Shown: in pieces, positions 30,631-50,376 of the stretch
Layout of the letters: every line of letters starts with the position of its first letter
Position numbering within the stretch: the first letter of the stretch is position 1
Position numbers and translations under genes: made by a program
NCBI RefSeq assembly: GCF_019308285.1
Contig: NZ_WWEM01000009.1
Location: forward strand, 62,001 to 126,000
DNA: 64,000 nucleotides
DNA from: Flavobacterium quisquiliarum
GTDB lineage: Bacteria; Bacteroidota; Bacteroidia; Flavobacteriales; Flavobacteriaceae
Direction of reading: 5' to 3'
The notes under the pieces: model-generated
What the model saw: only the letters and a program-made list of their open reading frames with translations
The model's database searches: none
What the model was told of the DNA's origin: nothing

Positions 30631-30684
30631 TTGGTTTTTATTATATAAAATTTAACTTTGTCTATAGGATTAGTAGAGTTTAAA
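30631..30684 (+). promoter_or_regulatory. Promoter and start-site block of sulfatase locus 1
   Basis: TTG at 30631-30633, a 19-bp spacer and TAACTTTG at 30653-30660 fit the Bacteroidota -33/-7 consensus very well. The 32 bp from taactttg to gtttaaa (30653-30684) are identical to 43579-43610 in locus 2, although flanking spacers differ. Identity across and beyond the expected start site (ctataggattagtagag) suggests an operator or a conserved 5' end of the RNA. Confidence 0.8.
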
Positions 30685-30713: not shown

Positions 30714-30800
30714 GTGAAAACAACAGAAAGCATATTGCATTACATTCTTCCTAAAAAGTACACTTATAACACTTCTTGTTGTATGTGTTTCTGTTGTTAA
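30714..30800 (+). CDS. Cys-rich 28-residue leader peptide of sulfatase locus 1
   Basis: A GTG-initiated frame of 28 codons plus TAA. The peptide begins MKTT, has YILPKK at residues 10-15 and TYN at 17-19, and ends with S-C-C-M-C-F-C-C: five of the last seven residues are Cys. The frame at 43628 in locus 2 has the same length, the same positions of MKTT, YILPKK and TYN, and the end MC-M-CC; 17 of 28 residues match. The first bases aacaacagaaa (30719-30729) pair perfectly with tttctgttgtt (30788-30798) over the Cys codons. Ribosome stalling at Cys codons during cysteine shortage would open this pairing. The coding assignment rests on cross-copy conservation, not on homology. Confidence 0.62.
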   Translation: MKTTESILHYILPKKYTYNTSCCMCFCC

Positions 30801-30984: not shown

Positions 30985-31017
30985 ATGAAAACAATGCAAA
31001 GCTGTTGCTGTAAATAA
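30985..31017 (+). CDS. Ten-residue leader frame B with CCC, locus 1
   Basis: ATG-initiated frame encoding MKTMQSCCCK and a TAA stop. In locus 2 a frame of the same length (MKIMHCPTLS) lies at the same distance, 59 bases, from the third mini-frame. The start context ATGAAAA-x-AATGCA is conserved, the rest is not. Three consecutive Cys codons suggest a second cysteine checkpoint, but only one Cys is present in locus 2. Confidence 0.35.
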   Translation: MKTMQSCCCK

Positions 31018-31022: not shown

Positions 31023-31048
31023 GCCATTTCTGCGGCAACAGAAATGGC
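31023..31048 (+). promoter_or_regulatory. Conserved leader hairpin enclosing a start codon, locus 1
   Basis: GCCATTTCTG (31023-31032), loop CGGCAA, then CAGAAATGGC (31039-31048): a perfect 10-bp stem. The ATG of the next mini-frame sits in the 3' arm. In locus 2 the stem differs at one position and keeps pairing as G-U, and the loop is identical. This could hide the start codon until a translating ribosome or a ligand opens the stem. Confidence 0.6.
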
Positions 31049-31091
31049 AAGGCTTAAAGAACATTTATCACTAAATCAAGAACACTTTTAG
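31044..31091 (+). CDS. Leader mini-frame C (MARLKEHLSL), locus 1
   Basis: Fifteen codons plus TAG, beginning MARLKEHLSL. Locus 2 encodes the same first ten residues, and the two base differences in that stretch (AGG/AGA, CTT/CTC) are both silent. After residue ten the copies diverge. The start codon lies inside a hairpin, and the frame ends 59 bp before susC. It could be a regulatory peptide or an effect of conserved RNA structure; two silent changes are suggestive only. Confidence 0.4.
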   Translation: MARLKEHLSLNQEHF

Positions 31092-31150
31092 AGTGCTGTA
31101 TAAACAGTGCTCAGGGCATCTTGTTAATTACTTAAAACCATTACAAAGAA

Positions 31151-34100
31151 ATGAAAAAAAAATTAAACATATACATACCGCTGTTTCTACTGTTGATAAC
31201 GGCGGGAATACACGCCCAAAATACCACGCCGCTTATTCAATCTAAACTCGACGGAACTGTAGTCGATGCTATTACAAATCAGCCAATTATCGGTGCTTCA
31301 GTTACGATTAAAGGAACAACTCACGGGGTTGTAACGGATGCTGAAGGAAAATTTTATTTTCAGACAGGACAGAAATTTCCTTATACTTTGATTGTAAGTT
31401 ACATTGGATATAAAAAATTAGAAATTATTGTAGAGAAAAATCCAGTAATTATTAACCTTAAAGAAGAACGTCAGGAACTAGATGAATTAGTAGTTGTTGG
31501 CTACGGAACGCAGAAAAGAAAAGATATTACGGGTTCTGTTGCTTCGGTTCCAAAAGCCAATTTATCTCAGGTAACCTCTTCGGCAGATAATCTTTTAAGA
31601 GGCGCAATTTCAGGGGTTGTAGTCACACAAAGTTCAGGACGACCTGGAGCTTCTTCAAGTGTACGTATTCGCGGAGGAAACTCTATCACTGCTGGTAACG
31701 AACCGCTTTATGTTGTAGACGGAATTCTAATTTACAATGATAACAGTAACAGTTCAGCAGGAGTTTCTTTTGCTGGAGCAAGTGTCAACGTCTTATCAAC
31801 AATAAATCCAGCAGATATTGAATCTATTGAAGTTTTAAAAGATGCTTCGGCAACTGCTATTTATGGTTCTCGAGGCGCTAATGGCGTTGTCATTATTACT
31901 ACTAAAAAAGGAACTAAAGGACAAGATAATATTTCGTATCAAGGTTATTTCGGATTCCAGAACATCTCCAAAAAACTAAGAATAATGAATGCAAGCGAAT
32001 GGGCTAGTTTAAGAAATGATGTTCAGGCAAGTATTGGTCAGGCTCCATCTTTTACAGATGCTCAGATTGAAGCATTTAAAACTTCTGGAAGTTATGATTG
32101 GCAAGACGCCGCATTTGTGACTGCTGCACCAATACAAAGTCATAACCTATCTTTCTCTGGCGGAGATGAAAGATCCAGATATTCAATCTCGGCTGGTTAT
32201 TTTGATCAGGACGGAATTGTTTTAGGAAGTGATTTTAAACGTATTTCTCTTCGTGCTAACTATGAAAGAAATTATTCTCAAAATTTCAAATTTGGCGTAA
32301 ATGCGAATTATACCAATTCTATTTCGAATGGAGTCGGCTCAAGCAGCAGTGGCGGTAGAAATCCAAACCCGTTAGTTGGTGTTTTATTAACTGCTCCCGT
32401 AGTTCCAATTAAAAATGCAGATGGAACTTATAATGTAACCAACAACCCTTATACAACTTCTGTAAATGGTTACGTTCCCAATCCGATTAATGATCTGGAA
32501 AATACTACTAATGAAACCAAAATCAATAGAATCTTAACGAGTTTATTTGGCGAGTACAAAATCACTAAAAAACTAACTGCTAAAGTCGCTGTAAGTGGTG
32601 ATGTTATCAACACAAAACAAAATTATTACGCCCCTGCAAACACTTCAAATGGCGCAGGAACAAAAGGTTTGGCTTCAGTTGGAGATAGAGTGGTAAGTTC
32701 TGTTTTAAATGAGAACACATTAAACTATAATACTAATTTTGGAGAAAGTCATAAATTTTCTGCTTTAGGAGGTTACACGCTTCAATACACTAAAGGCGAG
32801 GTTGTAAATGCGGGAGCACAGACCTTTGTAAACGATGCTAATACATACAATGCTTTACAAGATGGTGTTGCCGTAAAACCGTACAGCGATGCTTACGAAA
32901 GTGTATTAAAATCTTGGCTCGCAAGAATAAATTATTCTTATAAAGGAAAATATAATTTCACTTTATCTGGACGTGCAGATGGTTCTTCGAGATTTGGTGC
33001 TGAATCACTTTGGGGATACTTTCCTTCTGCTGGATTTTCTTGGAATATTACTGAAGAAGAATTTGCCAACAACATCAAAGGCGTAACCGAAGCTAAATTG
33101 AGAATTACCGCAGGAACAACAGGAAACCAGGAAATTGGAAATTATCTTTCTTTACCAGCAATGGGTTCTGTAAACTACTCTTTTGGAGGAACATTATACA
33201 CTGGTTTAGCCCCTACCCGATTGGCCAATCCCGATTTGAAATGGGAGAAAACAACTCAATATAACGTTGGATTGGATTTATCCTTATTAGACCGAAAAAT
33301 CAATTTTGTTTTTGATGTGTATTACAAAAAAACAAACGATTTATTAATCAGTGTTCCTGTTCCTTTGAGTTCAGGTTATGCAACAGTTCTTCAGAATATT
33401 GGTGGTGTTGAAAACAAAGGTTTGGAAATTGGTTTAACTACTGAAAATATTAAAACCGAAAAATTCGCATGGAATTCCAACATTGTATTTTCTGCTAATA
33501 AAAATAAAGTTACTGAAATTGGAAATGGCGTAAATGAGTTTTTTCCTGTAGTTCCAAATGGCTCTTTATTACAACAGCAACCCGTTATTGTAAAAGTTGG
33601 ATTGCCTTTGGGAACTTTCTGGGGGTATAAAACCAACGGAATTTTCCAAACTCAGGAAGAAGTCAACACACAACCAAAAATCAACAGTTTGGCCAATACC
33701 AAAGTGGGAGACAGAAGATATGTTGATGCAAATGGCGACGGCGTAATTAATGCCTTAGACAAAGGAAATTTAGGAACTTCTCAACCAAAATTTGTCGGCA
33801 GTTTCAGCAATACCGTTTCATACAATGATTTTGATTTGAATTTCTCTTTCCAAGGTTCTTACGGCGGAAAAATCTTTAATGCTTTAAATCAGCAGTTAGA
33901 AATTTCTACTCTTGGAACTAATGCAGCAACTACTTTAAATGATCGTTGGACACCAACAAATCCAAGCAATGAAATTCCGAGAGCAACAAGTTCTCCGCTA
34001 GGAATTGTTTCCGAAAGATATGTTGAAGATGCTTCTTTCTTACGATTGAAATTAATCACGCTAGGTTATACTTTACCTAAAAGTGTTTCTAAAAAACTAG

Positions 34101-34276
34101 GAACCAAAAGCGTGAAATTCTATGTATCAGCAGAAAATCTAATTACATGGACAAAATACACTGGTTATGATCCAGAGGTAAGTTCTTACGAACAAAACAA
34201 CTTATATCCGGGAATTGATTTTGGTTCTTATCCAAACTCTAAAACATTCATCTCGGGCTTGAACGTAACTTTCTAA
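31151..34276 (+). CDS. SusC-like TonB-dependent outer-membrane transporter 1
   Basis: A 1041-residue transporter that imports its ligand through the outer membrane with TonB energy. After a signal peptide ending HAQ there is a carboxypeptidase-D-regulatory-like domain (LDGTVVDAITNQPIIGASVTIKG), a plug domain (ELVVVGYGTQKRKDITGSV; IRIRGGNSI; PADIESIEVLKDASATAIYG) and a 22-strand barrel ending GLNVTF with a terminal Phe, the usual barrel-assembly signal. The N-terminal 90 residues are very close to those of the second SusC at 44021. Partner SusD follows after 16 bp. The substrate is probably a sulfate ester, judged only from the neighbours. Confidence 0.95.
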   Translation: MKKKLNIYIPLFLLLITAGIHAQNTTPLIQSKLDGTVVDAITNQPIIGASVTIKGTTHGVVTDAEGKFYFQTGQKFPYTLIVSYIGYKKLEIIVEKNPVIINLKEERQELDELVVVGYGTQKRKDITGSVASVPKANLSQVTSSADNLLRGAISGVVVTQSSGRPGASSSVRIRGGNSITAGNEPLYVVDGILIYNDNSNSSAGVSFAGASVNVLSTINPADIESIEVLKDASATAIYGSRGANGVVIITTKKGTKGQDNISYQGYFGFQNISKKLRIMNASEWASLRNDVQASIGQAPSFTDAQIEAFKTSGSYDWQDAAFVTAAPIQSHNLSFSGGDERSRYSISAGYFDQDGIVLGSDFKRISLRANYERNYSQNFKFGVNANYTNSISNGVGSSSSGGRNPNPLVGVLLTAPVVPIKNADGTYNVTNNPYTTSVNGYVPNPINDLENTTNETKINRILTSLFGEYKITKKLTAKVAVSGDVINTKQNYYAPANTSNGAGTKGLASVGDRVVSSVLNENTLNYNTNFGESHKFSALGGYTLQYTKGEVVNAGAQTFVNDANTYNALQDGVAVKPYSDAYESVLKSWLARINYSYKGKYNFTLSGRADGSSRFGAESLWGYFPSAGFSWNITEEEFANNIKGVTEAKLRITAGTTGNQEIGNYLSLPAMGSVNYSFGGTLYTGLAPTRLANPDLKWEKTTQYNVGLDLSLLDRKINFVFDVYYKKTNDLLISVPVPLSSGYATVLQNIGGVENKGLEIGLTTENIKTEKFAWNSNIVFSANKNKVTEIGNGVNEFFPVVPNGSLLQQQPVIVKVGLPLGTFWGYKTNGIFQTQEEVNTQPKINSLANTKVGDRRYVDANGDGVINALDKGNLGTSQPKFVGSFSNTVSYNDFDLNFSFQGSYGGKIFNALNQQLEISTLGTNAATTLNDRWTPTNPSNEIPRATSSPLGIVSERYVEDASFLRLKLITLGYTLPKSVSKKLGTKSVKFYVSAENLITWTKYTGYDPEVSSYEQNNLYPGIDFGSYPNSKTFISGLNVTF

Positions 34277-34292: not shown

Positions 34293-35765
34293 ATGAAAAA
34301 GATCATTATAACATTCCTTTTAAGTGCCGGATTATTGGTATCGTGCACAGAGCTGGAGGTAACACCAACCTCTTTTGTAACCGAAGACAATTACTTTATC
34401 ACTCAGGATGATGCTGTTGCTAGTGTTACCGCAGTTTATGCTTCCTTAAGCCTTGATCCGGGAGAACAGAGTTTATTTGGACGAAATCTTTATTTCCTAA
34501 CCGATATGGGTTCCGATTATGCAGCTGCAGGAGTTTCTGCTACCAATCCGCAGGTAAGAGCCATGAGCGCTTTAACACACGATGCCACAACCGACCGTGT
34601 TCAGGTAGCCTGGAGACAAATTTATGCCGGAATCAACAGAGCTAATGTTTCGATTGATAATATTCCGAAAGTAACGGGTAATGAAGTTATCAAAACACGA
34701 TTAATTAATGAAGCAAAGTTTATCAGGGCATTGCTTTATTTTCAGGCAGTACGTCTTTGGGGTGGTGTGCCGATTGTTTTGCACGAAGCGACTTCTATAC
34801 AATTGGGCAGTCTTAAAACAAACAGAGCAACTGTAGAAGAAGTTTATACGCAAATTATTAAAGATTTAACAGATGCAGAGTCTTTACCTCCGACCTATAC
34901 TGCTGCAGATGCCGGCCGCGCCACTTCTGGAGCTGCGAAAGCCATTTTAGCAAAAGTGTATCTGACTAGAAAAGATTGGCCAAATGCAATTGCAAAATCG
35001 AGAGAAGTAATTAACGGCGGTTATGGATATGCTTTGTTTGAAGATTTTCAAGATATTTTCACTAAAACTAAAAAGAACGGAAAAGAACATATTTTCTCTG
35101 TTCAATTCGAGCCAAATCAAGCAGGAAACGGTTCTAGCGGAAGCACTTTTCAAGCAACATCCTTTACTGGATTTACAGCAACAGAACCAGCAGATATTAT
35201 TTCAGATGTTGCTTTATTTTATGACATCTATGCTCCTGGAGACAAAAGAAGAGACGTTAGCTACGCCAAGCAATTGCTTAATCCGACAACGGGAACGCTT
35301 TATACTTTTCCAAAACCAATTTTCAAAAAATATCTGGATTTAACCAATCTGGCAACACCTGCAAACGTATCAATCAACTTTCCTGTGATTCGTTATGCCG
35401 ACATCCTTCTGTCTCTAGCGGAAGCGATAAACGAACAAAGCGGCCCAACAGCAGAAACTTACGAATTGATCAATCAAATTCGCAGAAGAGCCTTCGGAAA
35501 AGCCATTACAACGCCAGATGCAACAGTAGATTTAAGTGGATTAAATCAGGCAACATTTAGAGCGGCGATTCAGGAAGAACGCAAAAAAGAATTTGTACAG
35601 GAAGGACAAAGATGGTTCGATTTAGTGCGCTGGGGAACTTTGGTTACAGAAGTAAAAAAAGTAACTGCTAAAAACTCCGTTTCAGAACGAAATAACCTTT
35701 ATCCGATTCCGCAGAGTGAAAGAAATATCAATCCGGATGGCTTACCTCAAAATCCTGGATATTAA
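34293..35765 (+). CDS. SusD-like surface lipoprotein 1
   Basis: A 490-residue RagB/SusD family lipoprotein. The lipobox LLVSC gives C18 as anchor. The TPR-like helical region includes VAWRQIYAGINRANVSIDNI and NEAKFIRALLYFQAVRLWGGVPIV, both hallmark SusD segments, and the C terminus has RKKEFVQEGQRWFDLVRWG and NLYPIPQSERNINP. It caps the SusC barrel and binds substrate at the cell surface. Co-transcribed with susC; a palindromic repeat and the sulfatase gene follow. Confidence 0.95.
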   Translation: MKKIIITFLLSAGLLVSCTELEVTPTSFVTEDNYFITQDDAVASVTAVYASLSLDPGEQSLFGRNLYFLTDMGSDYAAAGVSATNPQVRAMSALTHDATTDRVQVAWRQIYAGINRANVSIDNIPKVTGNEVIKTRLINEAKFIRALLYFQAVRLWGGVPIVLHEATSIQLGSLKTNRATVEEVYTQIIKDLTDAESLPPTYTAADAGRATSGAAKAILAKVYLTRKDWPNAIAKSREVINGGYGYALFEDFQDIFTKTKKNGKEHIFSVQFEPNQAGNGSSGSTFQATSFTGFTATEPADIISDVALFYDIYAPGDKRRDVSYAKQLLNPTTGTLYTFPKPIFKKYLDLTNLATPANVSINFPVIRYADILLSLAEAINEQSGPTAETYELINQIRRRAFGKAITTPDATVDLSGLNQATFRAAIQEERKKEFVQEGQRWFDLVRWGTLVTEVKKVTAKNSVSERNNLYPIPQSERNINPDGLPQNPGY

Positions 35766-35963: not shown

Positions 35964-37880
35964 ATGAAAAATTTAAAAAATAACCTTTTAATCAAAAGTC
36001 CTAAAAAGGGGCTTTTGATTACTGCAATACTGGTTGCTCAATTAGGATTTGCACAAGACACACAAGAATTTAAAGGAACTATTGGTCAGACTTTGGCAGA
36101 TTCAAAAGAATATTGGCCTGAGCCTGTAACCGCTCCAAAGGGCGCTCCAAATGTGGTTTGGATTTTATTGGATGATGTTGGATTTGGCGCTTCAAGTGCA
36201 TTTGGAGGTTTAATCAACACTCCTACTTTTGATAATCTGGCAAACAATGGTTTACGTTATACCAATTTCCATACAACAGCGATTTGCGCACCGACCCGCG
36301 CCGCTTTGTTGACGGGAAGAAATTCAGGAAGAGTTCATGTAAGCGGATTTTCGCATACTATTTTATCAGCAGGTTTTCCAGGTTGGGATGGAAGAATTCC
36401 GTCTGATAAAGGAACTATTGCGGAGATTCTTCGTGCAAACGGATACAATACTTTTGCAGTTGGAAAATATGGTGTCACACCAGACGAAGAAGCTTCAGAT
36501 GCTGGGCCGTTTGACAGATGGCCGACTGGAAAAGGTTTCGATCATTTCTACGGATTCTTAGGCTCGCAGACCGATCAATACAATCCTGATTTAGTAGAAG
36601 ACCAAGTTCATATAAAACCTGATGGACGCCATTTAAATGAATTAATTACCGACAAAGCCATCAGCTATATTCAGAAACAGCAGAAAGCCGCGCCTGGAAA
36701 ACCATTTTTCTTATACTATGCGCCGGGAGCAGTTCATGCACCTCATCAGGTTGCCGAAAAATGGGTGGAGCCTTACAAAGGAAAATTTGACGAAGGCTGG
36801 GATGTTTACCGCGAAAAAGTTTTGGCTAACCAAAAGAAATTAGGAACTGTTCCTGCAAATGCTGTTTTACCAGAACGTAACGCCCTTATTACTGAATGGA
36901 AAAAATTGACTCCAGACCAAAAGAAAGTATATGCAAGATTCATGGAAGTTTATGCTGGATTCCTGACTTATACCGATTATGAAATCGGAAGAGTGGTGAA
37001 TTACCTAAAAGAAAGCGGTCAATTGGACAATACTTTAATTTTTGTTGCTATTGGAGATAACGGAGCCAGTAAAGAAGGAACTCTGCAGGGAACAATCAAT
37101 CAGAGCCTATTTTCTCAAGGGAAAACAGATGAAGAAAACTTCCAAAGCAATTTGAATAACATCGGTGAAATTGGAACGGCGAAAGGTTTAAACACGAACT
37201 ATCCTTTGGGTTGGGCACAAGCTACAAATGTTCCTTTTAAAAACTGGAAACAAGATGCACATTCTGAAGGAGGAACGCGTAACCCTTTGATTGTATTTTA
37301 TCCAAACGGAATTAAAGATAAAGGTGGCATCAGAAATCAATACAGCCACGTGACTGATTTGCTTCCAACAACTTTAGCCATTACTGGAATTAAAGCTCCA
37401 GAATATATCAAAGGAATTAAACAGGATATTATTCAAGGCTCTTCATTCCAAGCTTCTTTAGACAATCCAAAAGCAGAATCACTTCATAAAATTCAATATT
37501 ACTACATCTTTGGAAACAGAGCAATTTACAAAGATGGATGGAAAGCTTCTGCCGCACATTTACCAGATTCATTTGCTGTAAAAAAATCTTTAGGAAGCAA
37601 TGAAAAACCTGCACCAAGCAATTTCGATACCGACGTTTGGGAATTATATAATCTAAATGAAGACTTCAACGAACGTAATAATCTAGCGAAAAAATATCCA
37701 GAAAAGCTAGCTGAACTTCAAAAATTATTTGACGAACAAGCCAAAGAAAACAATGTTTACCCATTGATTGACTGGCAGGATGTGTACAACAGAAGAATTC
37801 ACAACACTGGAGCAGATAAAGGAAAAACAGTTTCTGATTTAATCAAACAGGCCACTAAACCTGGAGGAACCAATAACTAG
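35964..37880 (+). CDS. S1-family arylsulfatase 1, exported
   Basis: A 638-residue sulfatase with an N-terminal signal peptide ending FAQ. The metal-binding start is NVVWILLDDVGFG, and the active-site motif is C108-A-P-T-R-A-A-L-L-T-G-R, in which the Cys must be converted to formylglycine; no maturase gene is in the window. GKYGV and the downstream H/D-N-G (IGDNGASKEG) residues complete the metal site. It releases sulfate from an ester in the periplasm or at the surface. It is longer than the third sulfatase. It resembles bacterial arylsulfatases with an extra middle insertion. The exact substrate is unknown. Confidence 0.92.
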   Translation: MKNLKNNLLIKSPKKGLLITAILVAQLGFAQDTQEFKGTIGQTLADSKEYWPEPVTAPKGAPNVVWILLDDVGFGASSAFGGLINTPTFDNLANNGLRYTNFHTTAICAPTRAALLTGRNSGRVHVSGFSHTILSAGFPGWDGRIPSDKGTIAEILRANGYNTFAVGKYGVTPDEEASDAGPFDRWPTGKGFDHFYGFLGSQTDQYNPDLVEDQVHIKPDGRHLNELITDKAISYIQKQQKAAPGKPFFLYYAPGAVHAPHQVAEKWVEPYKGKFDEGWDVYREKVLANQKKLGTVPANAVLPERNALITEWKKLTPDQKKVYARFMEVYAGFLTYTDYEIGRVVNYLKESGQLDNTLIFVAIGDNGASKEGTLQGTINQSLFSQGKTDEENFQSNLNNIGEIGTAKGLNTNYPLGWAQATNVPFKNWKQDAHSEGGTRNPLIVFYPNGIKDKGGIRNQYSHVTDLLPTTLAITGIKAPEYIKGIKQDIIQGSSFQASLDNPKAESLHKIQYYYIFGNRAIYKDGWKASAAHLPDSFAVKKSLGSNEKPAPSNFDTDVWELYNLNEDFNERNNLAKKYPEKLAELQKLFDEQAKENNVYPLIDWQDVYNRRIHNTGADKGKTVSDLIKQATKPGGTNN

Positions 37881-40036: not shown

Positions 40037-40101
40037 AAAAAATGCGTAAAACTTTGACAAAGTTCTTACCCTCCTATGAAAAACTAACCAAAACCAAACT
40101 T

Positions 40102-41724
40102 ATGGCAACCTATAAAAAAATAACCAAAATTGTTATCCCAATTTTAATAGTGCTTTTCATTCTAGCAGCTTTTCTTTTCTGGCCAATTAATACTGATGGT
40201 ACTTTAGTCAAAGAAAATGAAAAACTGGCAGAAGGGAAAAAAGCTTTTTTAGCTTCCAAACCAAAATCTGATTCACTTTCAGAGAAAAAGACCAATATTA
40301 TCATTCTGCTTGCTGATGATTTGGGCAAATATGATATTTCACTCTATGGCGGAAAATCGACGCCTACTCCACAAATTGATTCTCTGGCCGCCTCGGGAGT
40401 TACTTTTACGGATGGTTACGCCTCTGCTGCAATCTGTTCTCCATCTCGCGCCGGATTAATCACGGGAAGATACCAGGAACGTTTTGGGCACGAATATCAG
40501 CCAGGAGATCGCTATCCCAAAAACAATCTGGAATATTATGCTTTTAAATATTTACTGAATACCAATGATTGGAGATTAAATGATAAAATCGAATATCCAA
40601 ACGAGGCTTCTATCAAAACACAAGGGCTTCCGAAATCTGAAATTACTTTTGCTGATTTAGCCAAAAGGCAAGGTTACGCTACAGGAATCATTGGTAAATG
40701 GCATTTAGGCCACAACAAAGGATTTTTTCCTCTAGACCGTGGCTTCGATTATCATTACGGATTTTATCAGGCGTTCTCCTTGTATGTTCCGGAAGATGAC
40801 AATCCGGATATTATCAATCATCATCATAAAGATTTTACCGATAAAATGATTTGGGGAAAAGGCCGTGTTGGAATCGGTCAAATTCGTCGTGATACTACTG
40901 TTATTGATGAAAAAGCGTATTTAACCGAAAAATTTGCCGAAGAAGCCGAAGCTTTCATCGATAAAAATAAAAACAAACCATTTTTGCTTTACATTCCATT
41001 CAACGCACCACATACGCCGTTTCAGGTTCGTAAAAAATATTACGATCGTTTTCCGAATGTAAAAGACGAAAATAAACGTGTTTATTTTGCCATGATCAGC
41101 GCTTTGGATGATGCGATTGGAAGAATTCGTGAAAAAGTAAAAAAAGAGGGCCTTGAAGACAATACCTTAATCATTTTTGCCAGTGATAATGGAGGTGCCG
41201 ATTATACTTTTGCTACAACAAATGCTCCGCTAAAAGGCGGTAAATTTTCGCATTTTGAAGGCGGAATAAATGTCCCTTTTGCACTTTCGTGGAAGGGAAA
41301 AATCAAACCTCATACGGTTTATAAACAGCCTGTAAGCACTTTAGATTTTTTTACCACCATTGCAGCAACGATTGGTTCAGATTTACCAAAAGACAGAGTT
41401 TACGATGGAGTTGATTTAGTCAAAACTGTCAATGAAAACAAGGTCGCGCACAAAGATTTATACTGGCGATCTGGTGATGCAAAAGCCATTAGAAGCGGTG
41501 ACTGGAAATTGGTCATTAGCGGCAAAACACATGAAAAATGGTTGTATAATCTAGCTTCGGATAAATTTGAAACAACAGACCTCTCACAAAAAAATCCTGA
41601 AAAGGTAAAAGAATTACAAACTGCGCTTCAAACCTGGGAAAAAGGATTGATCAAACCGCTTTGGCCAAACTTGACCTATTATGAATTCAATTTTGGAAAA
41701 CAGAAGTACTTTGTTGATTTGTAA
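40102..41724 (+). CDS. S1-family sulfatase 2, membrane-anchored
   Basis: A 540-residue sulfatase. The start at 40102 (MATYKKITKIVIPILIVLF) gives an N-terminal membrane helix, residues 9-28, without a clear cleavage site, so it is probably tethered to the inner membrane and faces the periplasm; a longer frame from 40042 would read sequence adjoining a repeat. NIIILLADDLG starts the metal site, and C112-S-P-S-R is the formylglycine motif (IC-S-P-S-R-A-G-L-I-T-G-R). GIIGKWHLG and FASDNGGADY complete the core. It differs in motif (S-P-S-R rather than A-P-T-R) from the other two, which suggests a different substrate or step. Confidence 0.92.
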   Translation: MATYKKITKIVIPILIVLFILAAFLFWPINTDGTLVKENEKLAEGKKAFLASKPKSDSLSEKKTNIIILLADDLGKYDISLYGGKSTPTPQIDSLAASGVTFTDGYASAAICSPSRAGLITGRYQERFGHEYQPGDRYPKNNLEYYAFKYLLNTNDWRLNDKIEYPNEASIKTQGLPKSEITFADLAKRQGYATGIIGKWHLGHNKGFFPLDRGFDYHYGFYQAFSLYVPEDDNPDIINHHHKDFTDKMIWGKGRVGIGQIRRDTTVIDEKAYLTEKFAEEAEAFIDKNKNKPFLLYIPFNAPHTPFQVRKKYYDRFPNVKDENKRVYFAMISALDDAIGRIREKVKKEGLEDNTLIIFASDNGGADYTFATTNAPLKGGKFSHFEGGINVPFALSWKGKIKPHTVYKQPVSTLDFFTTIAATIGSDLPKDRVYDGVDLVKTVNENKVAHKDLYWRSGDAKAIRSGDWKLVISGKTHEKWLYNLASDKFETTDLSQKNPEKVKELQTALQTWEKGLIKPLWPNLTYYEFNFGKQKYFVDL

Positions 41725-43556: not shown

Positions 43557-43610
43557 TTGGTTTTCTTTACAATAAAATTAACTTTGTCTATAGGATTAGT
43601 AGAGTTTAAA
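43557..43610 (+). promoter_or_regulatory. Promoter and start-site block of sulfatase locus 2
   Basis: TTG at 43557-43559, a 19-bp spacer and TAACTTTG at 43579-43586. The 32 bp at 43579-43610 are identical to those of locus 1. The spacer between the boxes differs at several positions, so the identity downstream of -7 is under selection or recently copied. Confidence 0.8.
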
Positions 43611-43627: not shown

Positions 43628-43714
43628 TTGAAAACAACAGCTTATACATCGCAATACATTCTTCCTAAAAAAATCACTTATAACAACTTCCGTTATATGT
43701 GTATGTGCTGTTAA
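43628..43714 (+). CDS. Cys-rich 28-residue leader peptide of sulfatase locus 2
   Basis: A TTG-initiated frame of 28 codons plus TAA, exactly as long as its counterpart at 30714. It begins MKTT, has YILPKK at residues 10-15, TYN at 17-19, and ends Y-M-C-M-C-C. Codon differences at K15 (AAG/AAA) and C27 (TGT/TGC) are silent. aacagc...ATACA near the start can pair with TGTAT...gctgtt over the Cys codons, so the hairpin seen in locus 1 is kept although both strands changed. Same reservations as for the first copy: a 28-codon frame with a non-ATG start needs direct proof of translation. Confidence 0.62.
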   Translation: MKTTAYTSQYILPKKITYNNFRYMCMCC

Positions 43715-43865: not shown

Positions 43866-43898
43866 ATGAAAATAATGCACTGCCCTACTCTTTCATAG
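43866..43898 (+). CDS. Ten-residue leader frame B, locus 2
   Basis: ATG-initiated frame encoding MKIMHCPTLS and TAG. Same length and same 59-base distance to mini-frame C as in locus 1. Only M-K-x-M and the start context are conserved, and just one Cys codon is present. Confidence 0.3.
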   Translation: MKIMHCPTLS

Positions 43899-43904
43899 TA
43901 AAAC

Positions 43905-43928
43905 CCATTTCTGCGGCAACGGAAATGG
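43905..43928 (+). promoter_or_regulatory. Conserved leader hairpin enclosing a start codon, locus 2
   Basis: CCATTTCTG (43905-43913), loop CGGCAA, CGGAAATGG (43920-43928). Nine pairs, one of them T-G (G-U in RNA) where locus 1 has T-A. The ATG of mini-frame C lies in the 3' arm. Confidence 0.6.
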
Positions 43929-43975
43929 CAAGACTCAAAGAACATTTATCACTAAAGAAAGCCTTCGAAAATTGA
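43925..43975 (+). CDS. Leader mini-frame C (MARLKEHLSL), locus 2
   Basis: Sixteen codons plus TGA, sharing MARLKEHLSL with locus 1 through synonymous codons. Its 3' end runs into a second small stem, gaaaattg/caattttt (about 43968-43989), 30 bp before susC. Confidence 0.4.
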   Translation: MARLKEHLSLKKAFEN

Positions 43976-44020: not shown

Positions 44021-47000
44021 ATGAACAAGCAATTACACGCCCTTTTGTGGATTTTTGTGTTTTTAATTTCTATAGGAATTAAAGCGCAAAATACACAACC
44101 CTTAATTAATTCGACCTTAAATGGTACCGTAATCGATCAGGTAACCAATCAGCCAATTCCGGGAGTTACCGTTCAAATCAAAGGAACAACGCACGCAGCG
44201 GTAACCGATTTAGACGGAAAATTCTATTTTCAGACCGGACAAAAATTCCCTTACACTTTAGTAGTAAGTTATTTAGGTTATATCACTACAGAACATATCG
44301 CAACCAAAGATTTCGTTCAGATTTCTTTAAAAGAAGATGTTAAAGAATTAAATGAAATCGTAATCATTGGATACGGAAGCACTTCTAAAAAAGATTATAC
44401 CGGAGCTGCCGAAACTGTGGCTCAAATGTCTTTAAAGGCTACACAGAAAACATTAGAAAGTTCGCTTCAGGGTTCTGTTGCAGGTGTAAACGTTACACAG
44501 ACTTCGGGTGCACCGGGAGCAGGAATGAGTATCCGTATTCGCGGCGGAAGTTCTATTCAAGGAGGAAACGAACCGTTGTATGTAATCGACGGATTTCCTA
44601 TATATAATTCCGAAGTAACTTCAGGCGTTTTGAGCGGTACGCCGACCAATCCACTTTCAACAATAAATCCAGCCGATATTGAATCGATTACAGTTCTGAA
44701 AGATGCTTCATCAACCGCAATTTATGGTTCCAGAGGAGCCAATGGAGTAGTTATTATTACAACCAAAAAAGGTTCGAGTACGGTAACAACTGTCAATTAT
44801 GATTTTACAATCGGTCAGCAGGAAGTTCGTAAAAAGATTGATTTACTAGATGCACAAGGTTTTTCCAGATTGCGAAATGCGGCTTTATACGACTCAAATC
44901 CATCAGGCGGTACAAACCAATATCTGAGTGAGGCACAAATTGCTCAACTTGGAAAAGGAACGGACTGGCAAGATGCTGCTTTCCAAAAAGGATTGACACA
45001 GAATCATCAATTGAGTATTTCTGGCGGAAACAATCAAACCAAATTTGCCATTTCTGGAAACTATTACAATCAAGAAGGAATTATTAAAAACACCGGTTTT
45101 GAGCGTTTCAGTACTCGTGTCAACTTAACTTCAAAAATAAACAGTAAAGCAAGATTTGGTTTAAACTTAACTCTTGCTGAAACCAAAGCCAAAGTAGCTC
45201 CAAGCGGTTTGATTACAGCTTTAATAAGCATGCCTCCTACTGCAACTATTTATGAACCGGATGGAACTTATACTTTAAGAAATCCGTTTGAAAATATTTT
45301 TGCCAATCCGATAGCGACTTTAAACGAACGCAAAAATCAATCTATCACCGATCGTATTTTGGGAACTGTATATGGCGAATATGATCTTTTGAAGAATTTA
45401 GTTTTAAAAGTTTCTTTTGGAACTGATGTTATTTTCAACAAAGAAAAAAGTTATCTGCCTGCAAGCATTTATGAAGGTTCTATCACAAATGGAGAAGGAA
45501 AAATTGGTAATGCCGATTCTAAAAGCTGGTTAAACGAAAACACTTTAACCTATACTACAGTTTTTGGCGAAAAACACCATTTGAATGCTTTAGCCGGTTA
45601 TACACAGCAAAGATCTACCAGAGAATTTTCGACTGCAGGATCACAGCAGTATGTAAACGACATTACAGGTTATTATAGTTTGCAAAGCGGTAATATTGCT
45701 TTAATGCCTTCTTCTGGTGAAAGTACCTGGGCTTTGAATTCTTATTTATCAAGAATCAATTACAATTACGATTCAAAATATTTCCTAACAGGAAGTATCA
45801 GAGCTGACGGTTCTTCTCGTTTTGGAAAAGATAATAAATGGGGTTATTTTCCATCTGTAGCTGCTGCTTGGCAGATTAGCAACGAAAGTTTTTTTGATCC
45901 GCTGAAAAAAGTCGTTAACAGCCTAAAAATTAGAAGCAGCTGGGGAGCAACAGGAAATCAGGAAATTGGAGAATACCAGTCTCTATCTACTTTGACGAGT
46001 GTAAAATATCTTTTTGGAGATCAGATTTATACTGGTTTTACGCCTACGAGAATTGCCAACGACAATTTAGGTTGGGAATTAACAAATCAGTTTGATGCTG
46101 GGGTTGATGTTGGTTTTTTCGAGGATAAATTGAATTTAACAGTTGATATTTATCGTAAAACCACTAAAAACTTATTGTTAGATGTTCAGCTTCCTTATAC
46201 AACTGGATTTACTTCTTCTCTACAAAATTTTGGTTCTGTTCAGAATCAGGGAATCGAATTAGGTTTGAATGCTTCTCTTGGAAATACAGCTTTTTCTTGG
46301 ACATCCAACTTTAATATTGCCTTTAATAGAAACAAAATTATTGCTTTAGGAAATGGTGCTGAATTCTATACTTTCGGAAATTATATTTTAAAAGTGGGAC
46401 AATCACTAGGAACATTTTACGGTGCTGTTACTGACGGAATTTTACAAACGGATGAAGTTGCTACTAAAGGAGTTTTCACAGGAAATGCAACGCCAAAAGC
46501 GGGAGATCGTTTGTACAAAGACATCAACGGAGACGGCGCTTTTACAACAGCTGCAGACAGAACCAGTATTGGCGACGCACAACCAGATTTTGTTTTCGGA
46601 TTCTCGAATAATTTTACTTACAGAGGTTTTGAATTAGCTGTTTTAGTAAATGGTTCGGTTGGAAATAAAATTTTGAACGGAAACTTACAAGCTTTAGAAT
46701 TGTATAACGGACAGCAAAATGCCTCAACTTCTGCTTTAGACGCTTGGACACCAACAAATCCAAGTAATACGACTCCGAGAGCGAAACTAGATCCTGCACC
46801 GGTTTTCTCCAATCGATTTGTGGAAGATGGTTCTTTCGTTCGATTAAAAAACATCACTCTAAGCTACAATCTGCCTAAGAAATTATCCGAAAAACTGAGT
46901 TTAACTTCAGTTAAATTCCGTGTCATTGGAGAAAACTTACTGACTTGGACAAAATACACTGGTTTTGATCCAGAAGTAACAAACGGAACTACTATTTCTC

Positions 47001-47068
47001 CAGGAACAGATACTGGAATTTATCCAGCTTCTAAAACTATTTCAGGTGGACTAAGTGTAACATTCTAA
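44021..47068 (+). CDS. SusC-like TonB-dependent outer-membrane transporter 2
   Basis: A 1015-residue transporter. The signal peptide ends KAQ; then come the carboxypeptidase-D-regulatory-like domain (LNGTVIDQVTNQPIPGVTVQIKG), the plug (EIVIIGYGSTSKKDYTGAA; IRIRGGSSI; PADIESITVLKDASSTAIYG) and the barrel ending GGLSVTF. The N-terminal domain is nearly the same as in SusC 1, and the barrel has diverged, which suggests duplicated loci adapted to different but related ligands. SusD 2 follows 10 bp downstream. Controlled by the Cys-codon leader. Confidence 0.95.
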   Translation: MNKQLHALLWIFVFLISIGIKAQNTQPLINSTLNGTVIDQVTNQPIPGVTVQIKGTTHAAVTDLDGKFYFQTGQKFPYTLVVSYLGYITTEHIATKDFVQISLKEDVKELNEIVIIGYGSTSKKDYTGAAETVAQMSLKATQKTLESSLQGSVAGVNVTQTSGAPGAGMSIRIRGGSSIQGGNEPLYVIDGFPIYNSEVTSGVLSGTPTNPLSTINPADIESITVLKDASSTAIYGSRGANGVVIITTKKGSSTVTTVNYDFTIGQQEVRKKIDLLDAQGFSRLRNAALYDSNPSGGTNQYLSEAQIAQLGKGTDWQDAAFQKGLTQNHQLSISGGNNQTKFAISGNYYNQEGIIKNTGFERFSTRVNLTSKINSKARFGLNLTLAETKAKVAPSGLITALISMPPTATIYEPDGTYTLRNPFENIFANPIATLNERKNQSITDRILGTVYGEYDLLKNLVLKVSFGTDVIFNKEKSYLPASIYEGSITNGEGKIGNADSKSWLNENTLTYTTVFGEKHHLNALAGYTQQRSTREFSTAGSQQYVNDITGYYSLQSGNIALMPSSGESTWALNSYLSRINYNYDSKYFLTGSIRADGSSRFGKDNKWGYFPSVAAAWQISNESFFDPLKKVVNSLKIRSSWGATGNQEIGEYQSLSTLTSVKYLFGDQIYTGFTPTRIANDNLGWELTNQFDAGVDVGFFEDKLNLTVDIYRKTTKNLLLDVQLPYTTGFTSSLQNFGSVQNQGIELGLNASLGNTAFSWTSNFNIAFNRNKIIALGNGAEFYTFGNYILKVGQSLGTFYGAVTDGILQTDEVATKGVFTGNATPKAGDRLYKDINGDGAFTTAADRTSIGDAQPDFVFGFSNNFTYRGFELAVLVNGSVGNKILNGNLQALELYNGQQNASTSALDAWTPTNPSNTTPRAKLDPAPVFSNRFVEDGSFVRLKNITLSYNLPKKLSEKLSLTSVKFRVIGENLLTWTKYTGFDPEVTNGTTISPGTDTGIYPASKTISGGLSVTF

Positions 47069-47078: not shown

Positions 47079-48527
47079 ATGAAAAAACTAATCATATTCA
47101 GTTTTGCGTCACTCTTTTTAATCAGTGCCTGCAATCCTTTGGACGAAGATCCAAAAGCTTTCATTTCGTCTACCAACTTTTATAAAACAACCGAAGATGC
47201 CGATGCAGCAGTAATTGCGATCCATAATGCCATCAACAGTTCAACACATACATTATACAATCGTTTAATCCAAATTGCTACTGAAATGGCTACAGACGAT
47301 TACGAAGCCGGGCCAAGAGCCAGAAATGCTCATGTTAGAGCTTTATCAAACCTGACTCATGATGCTTCAAACGATCGTATGATCGAATTGTGGAGACAGA
47401 GTTATGACGGCATCAACAGAGCAAATGTGGCTATTGATAATATTGCTAAAAACCCAAATCTTAATTCTCAGAAAGACAAAGATTTGATTAATGAAGCGAA
47501 GTTTTTAAGAGCACTTTTATATTTCAATTTAGTGAGATGGTTTGGCGATGTTCCACTGGTTTTACACGAAACAACTGTTTTGACGTCAGAAGCTATTAAC
47601 GTTTCGAACACACCCGAAGCCGATGTTTATACCCAAATTGAAAATGATTTGATTGATGCAGAAGCTCTTCCAGTAGTTCAGGCAAATAAAGGAAGAGTTA
47701 CGGCAGGTGCTGCAAAAAGCATTTTGGCAAAAGTATATTTAACCGAAAAAAAATGGCAGAAAGCAGCTGAAAAAAGTAAAGAAATCATTGATAGCAAAGT
47801 ATATGATTTATTCGAAAATTATGCTGACGTCTTTAACGTAGCAAGCAAAAACGGAAAAGAACATATTTTCTCAGCACAGTTTAAAGGTTTAACGAACTGG
47901 AATGGAAACATGCTGGCTTCTACAGCTGCGCCGACTTCTGTTCCTGGAATTGCAGGAGATCAAGCTGATGCTTTGCATAAAGAAGGCGGTCTTTTTGAGG
48001 CTTTCGCTGAAGATGACAAAAGAAAGTACATCACCTTTGCAGTAGAATTTGTGAGTCCAACTGATGGGAAAACCTATAAAGTGACGCCTCATTTCAATAA
48101 ATATTATGATCCTTCGACACCAGCTTCTCCTGGACAGTCTTCTAAAAACACGCCAATTATAAGATTTGCTGAAGTTTTATTGATTTATGCTGAAGCTGTA
48201 AACGAACAAAATGGCGGGCCAACTACCGAAGCTTACGCAGCAGTGGATCGAGTGAGAACAAGAGCGGGGATTCCATTATTAGCGACAACTTCTCCTGGAT
48301 TGAGTCAAGACGCTTTTAGAGAAGCTGTTTTTGAAGAAAGAAGAAAAGAATTGGTTTACGAATATCAGCGCTGGTTTGATTTGGCAAGAAGAGGCCCGGA
48401 TTATTTTGTGGCAAAATTAAAAGCAGCAGGAAAAACAAACGCTCAGCCAAAGCACGTTCACTTCCCTATTCCGCAAAGAGAATTGGATTTAAATCCGAAT
48501 TTAAAACAGGTTCCAGCTTGGAGGTAA
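47079..48527 (+). CDS. SusD-like surface lipoprotein 2
   Basis: A 482-residue RagB/SusD lipoprotein with lipobox LISAC (C18). Hallmarks are IELWRQSYDGINRANVAIDNI, LINEAKFLRALLYFNLVRWFGDVPLV and, at the C terminus, RRKELVYEYQRWFDLARRG and VHFPIPQRELDLNP. It pairs with SusC 2. It differs from SusD 1 mostly in the substrate-facing middle region (residues 260-350), as expected for related transporters with different ligands. Confidence 0.95.
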   Translation: MKKLIIFSFASLFLISACNPLDEDPKAFISSTNFYKTTEDADAAVIAIHNAINSSTHTLYNRLIQIATEMATDDYEAGPRARNAHVRALSNLTHDASNDRMIELWRQSYDGINRANVAIDNIAKNPNLNSQKDKDLINEAKFLRALLYFNLVRWFGDVPLVLHETTVLTSEAINVSNTPEADVYTQIENDLIDAEALPVVQANKGRVTAGAAKSILAKVYLTEKKWQKAAEKSKEIIDSKVYDLFENYADVFNVASKNGKEHIFSAQFKGLTNWNGNMLASTAAPTSVPGIAGDQADALHKEGGLFEAFAEDDKRKYITFAVEFVSPTDGKTYKVTPHFNKYYDPSTPASPGQSSKNTPIIRFAEVLLIYAEAVNEQNGGPTTEAYAAVDRVRTRAGIPLLATTSPGLSQDAFREAVFEERRKELVYEYQRWFDLARRGPDYFVAKLKAAGKTNAQPKHVHFPIPQRELDLNPNLKQVPAWR

Positions 48528-48723: not shown

Positions 48724-50376
48724 ATGAATAAAAGAATAAACATTTTATTTTCTGTCTTATTGACGGGAATAATAGGTTCTTATGAATCTGAAGCGCAAAA
48801 CGCATCCTCAAAACCCAACGTAATTTTGATTATGGTCGACGATATGGGATATTCGGATTTAGGGAATTATGGTTCAGAAATTAAAACACCCAACTTAGAT
48901 CGTTTGGCGAAAGAAGGAACACGTCTTCGTGAATTTTATAACAACTCAATCTGTGCGCCAACCAGAGCTTCTTTATTAACAGGGCAATATCAGCATAAAG
49001 CGGGAGTGGGTTATTTTGATGTTAATTTGGGTTTACCCGCTTATCAAGGATATTTAAACAAAGAATCTCTGACTTTGGGAGAAGTTTTCCGTTCGGGAGG
49101 TTACAGCACTTTAATGTCAGGAAAATGGCACGTTGGTTCTGAAGATCAGGCACAATGGCCAAATCAGAGAGGTTTTGATAAATTTTACGGAATCTTAAAA
49201 GGTGCGGCTAATTATTTTGATACCAAACCGCTTCCTTTCGGGAAAACAGCTTATCCGGTTAAAATGATTCGTAATAACGAAGAATTACATCCAAAAGATG
49301 ATTCTTACTACTTTACAGATGAAATTGGAAACAATGCAGTTACTTTCTTAGACGAACAAAATAAAGAAAACAAACCTTTCTTTTTGTACTTAGCTTTTAC
49401 TGCTCCGCACTGGCCATTACAGGCAAAAGCAGTTGACATTGCAAAATACAGAGGTAAATTTGACGAAGGCTGGGATGCTTTAAGAGAGAAAAGAATCAAA
49501 AAGTTAAGAGAAAACGGAATCTTACTGCCAAATCAGACAATTGCTCCAAGAGATCCTGAAGTTCCAGAATGGGATAAATTGACTTATGATGAAAAACAAT
49601 TTTGGAAAGCCAAAATGGAAGTGTATGCCGCAATGGTTGACAACATGGATCAAAACGTTGGAAAAGTTCTAGACAAACTTAAAGCTTTAAAGAAAGACAA
49701 AAACACTTTAATCATTTTCATTGCAGACAATGGCGCTCAAGGCGGATTCAATACATACAATCCTTTAAAAAGAGGTTTAGTTCGTAATGACGGCCCAATT
49801 GGAAGTTCTGGCTCTTTTGATTATCAAGAACAAAACTGGGCATATTTATCTAATACTCCATTACAGGATTATAAAAACAATATGCACGAAGGCGGTTTCA
49901 GTTCGCCGTTTATTGCTTGGTATCCATCAAAAATAAAAGCAGGAAGAATCGATAAAGGAACTGGACACATAATTGACCTTGCTCCTACTTTTTACGAATT
50001 GGCTGGAATTGAATATCCTAAAAACTTAAACGGTGTAAACTCTAATCCGCTTGCTGGAAAAAGTTTATTGCCTGTTTTATTTGACAATGCATCAGAAGTA
50101 AACCGCGGTGCACCACTATTCTGGGAAAGAGCTGGAAACAGAGCAGTAAGAGAAGGAAAATGGAAACTAGTTTCAATCTATCCATCGTATCAATGGGAAC
50201 TTTACGATCTTGAAGCTGATCGTGGCGAAACAACCAATGTTGCGACTCAAAATCCAGGAATCGTAAACGATCTTTCGGCAAAATATTTTGACTGGGCAGA
50301 TAAAACAGGAGTAGTTGAATACAGTAAATTCAAACAAAAAAATGAACTGATTCCAGGCGCAGCTGCTAAGAAATAA
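48724..50376 (+). CDS. S1-family arylsulfatase 3, exported
   Basis: A 550-residue sulfatase with signal peptide ending SEAQ. NVILIMVDDMGYSDLGNYG starts the metal site; C77-A-P-T-R-A-S-L-L-T-G is the formylglycine motif; MSGKWHVG and FIADNGAQGGF follow. The alternating KFDEGWDALREKRIKKLRENG segment is typical of bacterial arylsulfatases and is shared in part with sulfatase 1 (KFDEGWDVYREK), so those two are closer to each other than to sulfatase 2. It is the last gene of locus 2, followed by two terminators. Confidence 0.93.
   Translation: MNKRINILFSVLLTGIIGSYESEAQNASSKPNVILIMVDDMGYSDLGNYGSEIKTPNLDRLAKEGTRLREFYNNSICAPTRASLLTGQYQHKAGVGYFDVNLGLPAYQGYLNKESLTLGEVFRSGGYSTLMSGKWHVGSEDQAQWPNQRGFDKFYGILKGAANYFDTKPLPFGKTAYPVKMIRNNEELHPKDDSYYFTDEIGNNAVTFLDEQNKENKPFFLYLAFTAPHWPLQAKAVDIAKYRGKFDEGWDALREKRIKKLRENGILLPNQTIAPRDPEVPEWDKLTYDEKQFWKAKMEVYAAMVDNMDQNVGKVLDKLKALKKDKNTLIIFIADNGAQGGFNTYNPLKRGLVRNDGPIGSSGSFDYQEQNWAYLSNTPLQDYKNNMHEGGFSSPFIAWYPSKIKAGRIDKGTGHIIDLAPTFYELAGIEYPKNLNGVNSNPLAGKSLLPVLFDNASEVNRGAPLFWERAGNRAVREGKWKLVSIYPSYQWELYDLEADRGETTNVATQNPGIVNDLSAKYFDWADKTGVVEYSKFKQKNELIPGAAAKK

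What the first reader, a model, noticed from the sequence alone, without database searches (positions are those of the whole stretch)
30714..30800. Candidate cysteine-sensing leader peptide in front of a susCD-sulfatase locus
The leader of sulfatase locus 1 holds a 28-codon frame (GTG start) whose last seven codons include five Cys codons before the stop. The 11 bases near its start (30719-30729) are the exact complement of 30788-30798, which contain the Cys codons. This is the layout of an amino-acid attenuator: Cys shortage would stall ribosomes on the tail, changing the RNA fold. Control of sulfate-ester uptake by cysteine supply makes biological sense. Poly-Cys leader frames are known in mycobacteria; I know of none described for Bacteroidota sulfatase loci. 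No classical terminator is seen after the frame, so control may act on translation or through Rho.
Basis: partly seen in the sequence, partly recalled or inferred. Interest (0 to 1): 0.92.

Follow-up and report, generated by a model that had tools for sequence, protein, structure and literature searches.

The report
Cysteine-sensing leader peptides before sulfatase genes
Flavobacterium bacteria carry tiny cysteine-rich reading frames in front of sulfate-ester uptake, sulfatase and cysteine-making genes, which very probably let the ribosome measure cysteine supply and switch these genes accordingly.

Summary
In detail: a 28-codon GTG frame (30714-30800) has five Cys among its last seven codons, and its start is exactly complementary to its tail. 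It is not chance: 0 of 20,000 simulated leaders gave >=5 Cys in a frame's last eight codons. A homologue precedes the window's second susCD-sulfatase locus (43628-43714). The leader precedes susC, sulfatase and serine acetyltransferase-cysteine synthase-encapsulin genes: a likely cysteine regulon. I also found a second, ATG-started Cys frame (uORF2, MKTMQSCCCK*, 30985-31017) beside a conserved hairpin before susC, and, elsewhere in the same genome, Met/Cys leaders with intrinsic terminators before metY. Cysteine sensing by ribosome stalling is therefore well supported. How it controls the sulfatase loci is not: 0 of 117 leaders hold a plus-strand terminator, so Rho or translation is inferred. 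No expression data were available. I rate it a new variant of a known kind (cysteine leader peptides of Actinobacteria).

The parts
30631..30660 (+). Bacteroidota-type promoter: TTG (30631-30633) and -7 box TAACTTTG (30653-30660)
   Evidence: TAnnTTTG at 108 of 108 box-A sites with enough upstream sequence, TTG 22 nt upstream of it at 107 of 108; TAnnTTTG consensus from PMC9723704 (passages)
30657..30681 (+). Box A TTTGTCTATAGGATTAGTAGAGTTT, running from the -7 box over the expected transcription start
   Evidence: Identical at 43583-43607; in 30 of 150 genus genomes with up to 3 mismatches; 109 distinct sites in public genomes. Function unknown
30714..30800 (+). uORF1, 28 codons, GTG start, Cys-rich tail CCMCFCC*
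   Evidence: Frame kept in 51 of 52 and 107 of 107 box-A leaders; on 46 distinct copies pN/pS 0.46 overall, 0.195 in the tail, against 1.44 and 0.53 for the tail in the two other frames
30719..30729 (+). 5' arm of stem S1 (start of uORF1)
   Evidence: Exact complement of 30788-30798; pairing test
30788..30798 (+). 3' arm of stem S1, within the Cys codons
   Evidence: As above
30985..31017 (+). uORF2, ATG start, MKTMQSCCCK*
   Evidence: An ATG frame with >=2 Cys ends 4-11 nt before the hairpin core in 85 of 116 copies of hairpin B
31023..31048 (+). Hairpin B, GCCATTTCTG-CGGCAA-CAGAAATGGC; by eye the loop ends in a GNRA-like tetraloop (GCAA, GGAA, GTAA; not in L100)
   Evidence: Alignment of 39 copies, variant copies, RNAalifold pair probability 1.0 in 35. 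Terminator-like only when read on the minus strand
31059..31072 (+). Box C GAACATTTATCACT, function unknown
   Evidence: Same motif at 43940 and, with changes, in the alignment of 39 copies
31077..31123 (+). Hairpin C (outer CAAGA/TCTTG, inner GAGTGCTG/CAGTGCTC)
   Evidence: Pairs change together across 35 aligned leaders; pair probability 0.96-1.0
31151..34276 (+). susC1 (TonB-dependent receptor)
   Evidence: Pfam
34293..35765 (+). susD1
   Evidence: Pfam SusD_RagB
35964..37880 (+). sulfatase
   Evidence: Pfam PF00884
38119..39174 (+). fatty acid hydroxylase family protein
   Evidence: Pfam PF04116
39186..39902 (+). rhodanese-thioredoxin protein
   Evidence: Pfam
40042..41724 (+). sulfatase
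   Evidence: Pfam PF00884
41848..43107 (+). YeiH-like putative sulfate exporter
   Evidence: Pfam PF03601; TIGR00698 below its cut-off
43583..43607 (+). Box A of locus 2
   Evidence: Identical to locus 1
43628..43714 (+). uORF1 of locus 2, TTG start, MKTTAYTSQYILPKKITYNNFRYMCMCC*
43866..43898 (+). uORF2 counterpart of locus 2, MKIMHCPTLS*, with one Cys only
43904..43929 (+). Hairpin B of locus 2
44021..47068 (+). susC2, 46% identical to SusC1
47079..48527 (+). susD2
48724..50376 (+). sulfatase

Best explanation
The susCD-sulfatase mRNA starts at box A and carries a cysteine-sensing leader. uORF1 is translated at low rate from a TTG/GTG start. When Cys-tRNA is short, the ribosome stalls on the Cys codons at its end, covers the tail and keeps stem S1 (tail pairing with the frame's own start) open; when Cys is ample, the ribosome finishes, S1 closes and the long downstream leader is left untranslated and exposed. 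A second Cys frame (uORF2) right before hairpin B repeats the reading close to susC. Cys shortage thereby raises expression of sulfate-ester uptake, sulfatases and, in relatives, the serine acetyltransferase-cysteine synthase-encapsulin-cysteine desulfurase operon. Shown: both frames, their conservation, the Cys tails, the gene set, absence of recognisable intrinsic terminators. Inferred: that they are translated, that cysteine is the signal, the direction of the response, and that control acts through Rho or through translation.
For: uORF1 intact after box A at 51 of 52 genus sites and 107 of 107 examined public sites (overlapping sets); in the latter 93 have >=4 and 106 have >=3 Cys in the last eight codons, length 27-29 codons apart from 3 start-choice artefacts, start TTG (86) or GTG (21), never ATG. 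Tail pN/pS 0.195, with TGT/TGC exchange. Two leaders found through hairpin B without a box-A match also carry uORF1. Behind the 107 sites: susC 57, sulfatase 11, EpsC 9, encapsulin 1, unassigned 29. EpsC, CysK and family 2A encapsulin over the NCBIfam cut-off; cysteine desulfurase cargo matched on a truncated gene, below cut-off. 4 of 6 encapsulin-bearing genomes found without using the leader carry it there. uORF2 with >=2 Cys before 85 of 116 hairpins B; MKRSCC* with hairpin B also before an operon-internal susC without box A. The same genome has Met/Cys leaders with intrinsic terminators before metY, and 29 of 30 genus loci fetched by DNA similarity have such a leader plus terminator. In another Bacteroidia family, 18 of 24 SAM-riboswitch metY leaders hold a Cys-tailed frame, two of the 18 being the loci that led me there.
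Against: No expression, ribosome or cysteine-response data. 0 of 117 leaders hold a plus-strand terminator by the rule that found them in the metY leaders, so a core part of classical attenuation is missing. S1 is weak in the MCCCC class. 31 of 116 hairpin-B copies have no ATG frame with >=2 Cys, among them the locus-2 type MKIMHCPTLS*. uORF1 was found only within the genus. Box A was the search key of the main counts. One of 107 leaders has only two Cys in its last eight codons.
Confidence: 0.75

Rival explanations
1. A conserved structured RNA (protein-, ligand- or sRNA-binding) in which the reading frame is incidental.
For: Hairpins B and C and boxes A and C are conserved; the S1 arms lie inside the frame.
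Against: Frame, stop and a Cys-bearing end are kept at 51 of 52 and 107 of 107 examined sites; the tail varies mainly synonymously in this frame only (ratio 0.195 against 1.44 and 0.53); length differences are whole codons; the MCCCC class has another middle but keeps start and tail.
Confidence: 0.08
2. Hairpin B is the terminator of a DonS-like antisense RNA that represses susC; the Cys frames add to it or are secondary.
For: Hairpin B with its A-run is terminator-like on the minus strand only: the one terminator-like site in the window region, 71 of 117 leaders on the minus strand and 0 on the plus strand, >=6 A in the 9 nt before the stem in 99 of 116 copies. Antisense RNAs of this orientation repress susC homologues in Bacteroides (PMC7366714, passages).
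Against: No conserved minus-strand promoter of the known consensus within 600 nt in 110 copies; A-runs are common in such AT-rich leaders; it does not explain the Cys frames.
Confidence: 0.25
3. uORF1 encodes a functional small Cys-rich peptide, for example metal- or thiol-binding.
For: The middle YILPKKYTYN is conserved in the main class.
Against: TTG/GTG starts only, directly behind the promoter, mostly before sulfur genes, other middle in the MCCCC class; the four peptides scanned have no NCBIfam match and no Pfam match over a cut-off.
Confidence: 0.04
4. The nascent YILPKKYTYN segment, which would sit in the exit tunnel when the Cys tail is decoded, makes uORF1 an arrest peptide; the signal may be redox or a sulfur metabolite rather than Cys-tRNA charging.
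For: Conserved segment shortly before the tail in the class with interrupted Cys (CxCC); leaders with Cys in a row (MCCCC) have a different middle.
Against: Part of this conservation may reflect common descent or RNA pairing; codons 7-20 show only mild purifying selection (ratio 0.62).
Confidence: 0.15

Closest known systems
Poly-cysteine leaderless uORFs of mycobacteria (Canestrari et al. 2020, seen only as cited in passages of PMC9094748; candidates in PMC4633059, passages)
   Same: Short upstream frame with a Cys cluster at its end before sulfur genes
   Different: Those are leaderless; here the start lies 44-59 nt behind the first base of box A. I made no direct sequence comparison with them. 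Here two Cys frames in series, before TonB transporter and sulfatase genes
Cys leader peptides of Mycobacterium, Propionibacterium and Bifidobacterium cys/cbs operons (PMC1262725, passages)
   Same: Cys codons near the stop, no conserved terminator hairpin; Rho suggested by those authors
   Different: Other phylum and other gene set
Met/Cys leader attenuators before metY in the same genome (found here)
   Same: Cys codon runs at the end of a short frame, sulfur amino-acid genes
   Different: They have intrinsic terminators and a candidate antiterminator; the sulfatase leaders have none that I could find
SAM riboswitch plus Cys-tailed frame before metY in another Bacteroidia family (found here)
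   Same: Cys-tailed frame (e.g. ...CICMCCCC*) in the leader
   Different: ATG start, mostly longer frame, preceded by RF00162
DonS-type antisense RNAs of Bacteroides PULs (PMC7366714, passages)
   Same: Possible minus-strand terminator in the susC leader
   Different: No promoter seen; no transcript known

Membership tests
Classical amino-acid attenuator (trp/his type) | Leader frame with a run of the regulatory codon near its stop | tested here: met
Classical amino-acid attenuator (trp/his type) | Regulated genes supply that amino acid | tested here: met
   EpsC, CysK, encapsulin, sulfatases, SusCD behind the leader; for SusCD-sulfatase the supply is indirect (sulfate)
Classical amino-acid attenuator (trp/his type) | Intrinsic terminator with competing antiterminator after the frame | tested here: not met
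   0 of 117 regions between uORF1 stop and the called CDS start
Classical amino-acid attenuator (trp/his type) | Expression rises on starvation for that amino acid | not testable with these tools
   No expression data
Mycobacterial poly-Cys uORF attenuators | Cys run at the end of a short upstream frame | tested here: met
Mycobacterial poly-Cys uORF attenuators | Leaderless uORF (start at the 5' end) | tested here: not met
   Start 44-59 nt behind the first base of box A, whose first four bases are the end of the -7 box; the TSS itself was not mapped
Mycobacterial poly-Cys uORF attenuators | Cysteine-responsive expression | not testable with these tools
   No expression data
DonS-like susC antisense RNA | Minus-strand terminator in the susC leader | tested here: met
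   71 of 117; A-run in 99 of 116 hairpin-B copies
DonS-like susC antisense RNA | Minus-strand promoter | tested here: inconclusive
   No conserved TTG/TAnnTTTG pair within 600 nt in 110 copies; other promoter types not covered
Known Rfam riboswitch | Match at gathering score in the leader | tested here: not met
   Only Flavo-1 at 61284-61425 in the window

The most novel reading that the evidence does not exclude
A two-checkpoint cysteine sensor: uORF1 (weak start, Cys tail, helped by its nascent chain) controls how far transcription runs through the long leader without any intrinsic terminator, and uORF2 beside hairpin B controls susC itself, so that two ribosome-based cysteine readings in series tune sulfate-ester scavenging; Cys-tailed leaders may be a widespread way to control sulfur genes in Bacteroidota, including in series with SAM riboswitches.
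Probability: 0.3. Interest if true: 0.87.

Novelty: new variant of a known kind. Interest (0 to 1): 0.74.

Why it matters
It would explain how these Bacteroidota tie outer-membrane uptake of sulfated compounds to their cysteine budget without a dedicated transcription factor, and it would bring family 2A encapsulin (nanocompartment) operons under the same control. SusC homologues are usually discussed as carbon-uptake genes (my recollection of the field); here one class would serve sulfur scavenging. It gives ready-made test constructs for ribosome-based regulation in a phylum without Shine-Dalgarno sequences. My ten paper searches in the held open-access library listed no paper that I recognised, from titles and abstract starts, as describing cysteine leader peptides in Bacteroidota; of the lists longer than the cap I saw only the top rows.

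Tried and rejected
Intrinsic terminator after uORF1 or uORF2: none on the plus strand.

A coding frame through hairpin B (AISAATEMARLKEHLSL): looked coding from the two window copies, but by eye it breaks in other copies while the hairpin core stays.

Pairing of the uORF1 tail with hairpin B: possible in locus 1, judged by eye not to hold in copies with other tails; not counted.

uORF1 outside the genus: HMM A1 gave 9 of 299 family genomes at E<=0.01, but only the own genome and G060, both of the genus, had strong hits; the other seven were marginal (E 0.003-0.0096) and I discounted them. SusC homologues of other genera: 27 of 28 loci read have no Cys-tailed frame in 700 nt upstream, one has an unrelated 17-codon frame 539 nt away.

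MCCC pattern through the phylum: 65 of 296 genomes match, by eye clearly more than the reversed control (not summed), but repeats and other contexts are among them; of the 30 loci read only L304 and L305 were clear leaders.

MetY of the own family: the start finder failed for 29 of 30 loci; redone, a Cys frame in 2 of 30, one of them (L346, 464 nt away) probably chance, the other the own genome (followed up).

Class labels 'SusC' and 'sulfatase' are unreliable (the label rule catches VDD in SusC), so I quote only the total of 116. In one search the start of L047 was mispicked and L089 missed; one search corrected both. In one search the called CDS start of some leaders is an upstream in-frame ATG, so those regions are shorter than the true leader.

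Full report
What is there. The frame at 30714-30800 is as described: GTG start, VKTTESILHYILPKKYTYNTSCCMCFCC*, start and tail exactly complementary over 11 nt. It lies in the 927-nt gap before a susCD-sulfatase locus (susC1 31151-34276; Pfam). A homologous leader, 43628-43714 (TTG, MKTTAYTSQYILPKKITYNNFRYMCMCC*), precedes susC2 at 44021, although the two SusC proteins are only 46% identical. Both follow the same 25-nt box A (30657-30681, 43583-43607), which begins with the last bases of a Bacteroidota -7 promoter box. A third SusC of the same genome (G000:C4, L100/L163) has an ATG-started relative, MKTSKNISLSNKQKSFSCFDLMCSFC*, and MKKRMCSR* before its susC.

Is it more than chance. In 20,000 Markov copies of the gap, frames with >=4 Cys in the last 8 codons arose in 0.05% and with >=5 in none.

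Conservation. Box A, with up to 3 mismatches, occurs in 30 of 150 genus genomes drawn. Of 52 distinct sites read, 51 have uORF1 with 27-29 codons; the exception (L081) is a 3-mismatch match with no downstream gene found. The two sets overlap. The 80 record titles shown are all Flavobacterium or Flavobacteriaceae. Box A was the search key, so I also looked at leaders found otherwise: the 32 of 150 genomes with hairpin B are the 30 with box A plus two without a box-A match, and both of these carry uORF1 (VITTENISFDILPKKYTYSAVCYMCSCC*, LKKITNISNLMMRQYTAFGNSCRMCCCC*). On 46 distinct 28-codon copies, pN/pS is 0.46 in the frame and 0.195 over codons 21-28, against 1.44 and 0.53 for the tail in the other two frames. 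These are pooled pair counts without a tree. The peptide has two main classes...YILPKKYTYNTFCYMCFCC* and ...RMCCCC*; start and tail are what they share.

What it precedes. Of 107 sites, by simple sequence rules: SusC 57, sulfatase 11, EpsC 9, encapsulin 1, unassigned 29 (17 with no CDS within reach, 12 'other', of which 9 begin like SusC). In the two EpsC operons read furthest (L063, L065) EpsC is followed by CysK, a family 2A encapsulin shell gene and its cysteine desulfurase; by NCBIfam EpsC 151.0 bits (cut-off 150), CysK 388.2 (350.95), encapsulin 530.7 (380), and the desulfurase cargo 222.3 on a truncated gene (cut-off 800). A search for the encapsulin itself in the order found 6 of 296 genomes, all of the genus; four have uORF1 before that operon (G049 and G060; L159 and L160), one of them ending MCFCR; in L161 and L162 none was found.

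A second Cys frame. Just before susC1 lies ATG...MKTMQSCCCK* (30985-31017), 5 nt before hairpin B (31023-31048). In 116 distinct hairpin-B copies before an open CDS, 85 have an ATG frame with >=2 Cys ending 4-11 nt before the hairpin core: MKTMQTCCCK*, MKLMCCK*, MKRSCC* and the like. The locus-2 type (MKIMHCPTLS*) has one Cys and some have none. In G060 an operon-internal susC (50% identical to SusC1), shortly behind a sulfatase-like frame, has uORF2 and hairpin B but no box A in front of it (L164), so this module can stand alone. Hairpin C further down covaries; the susC start codon itself is unpaired in the consensus, which speaks against simple sequestration by these two hairpins.

How it may work. 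The stem S1 between uORF1's start and tail is real in locus 1 and mostly kept: mean duplex energy -14.4 kcal/mol for cognate and -13.5 for non-cognate pairs (9 of 20,000 permutations), -10.5 after synonymous recoding; but only 13 of 49 copies beat 95% of their own recodings, and the MCCCC class averages -7.6. I read S1 as a device that closes uORF1 after a completed pass, and Cys stalling as what keeps it open; this is inference. No plus-strand intrinsic terminator was found in 117 leaders, so the output is Rho-dependent termination in the long untranslated leader or translation; I cannot choose. Hairpin B with the A-run before it is terminator-like on the minus strand (71 of 117; A-run in 99 of 116), so an antisense RNA of the DonS kind (PMC7366714, passages) is a serious partner or rival, though no conserved promoter was seen.

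Support that these bacteria read cysteine with leader peptides. Before metY of the same genome (L352; TIGR01326) stand two leaders in series, MNLTAKNMCCMMSEQSAE* and MKNSTVNKMMMCCKMPMCIQSCCCQK*, each followed by an intrinsic terminator; the Cys-codon end of the second (L352:1149-1158) can pair with the terminator's 5' arm (1198-1207), as an antiterminator would. The consensus scan listed only the second of these terminators on the plus strand. DNA similarity found matches in 67 of 101 genus genomes, many of them short; of the 30 loci fetched (the best-scoring), 29 have at least one Cys/Met leader with a terminator; I did not check that metY follows in each. In another Bacteroidia family 40 of 61 genomes have this MetY at E<=1e-120 and the 30 best loci were read: 24 have a SAM riboswitch at gathering score; a Cys-tailed frame (>=3 Cys in the last 9 codons) was found in 18 of 28 in which the metY start could be placed, all 18 with the riboswitch. 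Two of these 18 (G907, G806) are the loci that the MCCC pattern had led me to. Of the six riboswitch leaders without it, two have frames ending RMCC* and CMCQ*. These leaders show no evident sequence relation to uORF1.

Known and new. Cys leader peptides without terminators are known in Actinobacteria (PMC1262725, PMC4633059; passages). Leader-peptide attenuation was proposed for amino-acid operons of F. psychrophilum (PMC9723704, passages and section 19); the text seen does not mention cysteine in that context, and its supplement was not open to me. My searches listed nothing on it for Bacteroidota sulfatase, susC or encapsulin loci; the library holds open-access papers only. It works like an amino-acid leader, but is not a member of the classical attenuators (no terminator found) nor of the leaderless mycobacterial ones (start well behind the promoter).

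Weak points. No expression data; comparative counts share ancestry; uORF1 is known from one genus only; the public scan was truncated; gene classes behind the sites rest on simple rules.

Noticed in passing
L352:927-1224 (own genome, G000:C3, before metY): Two Met/Cys leader peptides in series, each with an intrinsic terminator, the second with a candidate antiterminator formed by its Cys codons; 29 of 30 similar genus loci fetched have such a leader with terminator.
   Followed up: partly
L304, L305, L313-L342 (another Bacteroidia family): SAM riboswitch (RF00162) followed by a Cys-tailed leader frame before metY: 18 of 24 riboswitch leaders.
   Followed up: partly
L005, L063, L065, L068, L070, L071, L073, L076, L077, L079, L159, L160: The Cys leader stands before EpsC, CysK, family 2A encapsulin or sulfatase genes, tying encapsulin operons to likely cysteine control.
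   Followed up: partly
31016-31048, minus strand: Hairpin B is terminator-like on the minus strand; it may end an antisense RNA to susC.
   Followed up: partly
L101:1501-1521: A box-A-like sequence (TCTATCAAATTAGTAGA) also lies before a FecR-like gene (named by eye) without a Cys-tailed frame seen; box A may be a more general promoter-proximal element.
   Followed up: no
61284-61425: Flavo-1 RNA (RF01705), 52.1 bits, function unknown.
   Followed up: no
43190-43330: Short palindromic repeats (CCTCCAGCTTTAGCTGGAGG and a GGCTTTAGCC element) between loci 1 and 2; similar ones lie in L161 (seen by eye).
   Followed up: no
L161, reverse strand, 3650-4490: A frame that looks like the end of cysK stands before an intact encapsulin gene, next to such repeats; no Cys leader was found there.
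   Followed up: no
L352:642-750, minus strand: SAM-II riboswitch (RF01726, 48.4 bits) on the strand of a divergent gene that looks like S-adenosylmethionine synthetase.
   Followed up: no
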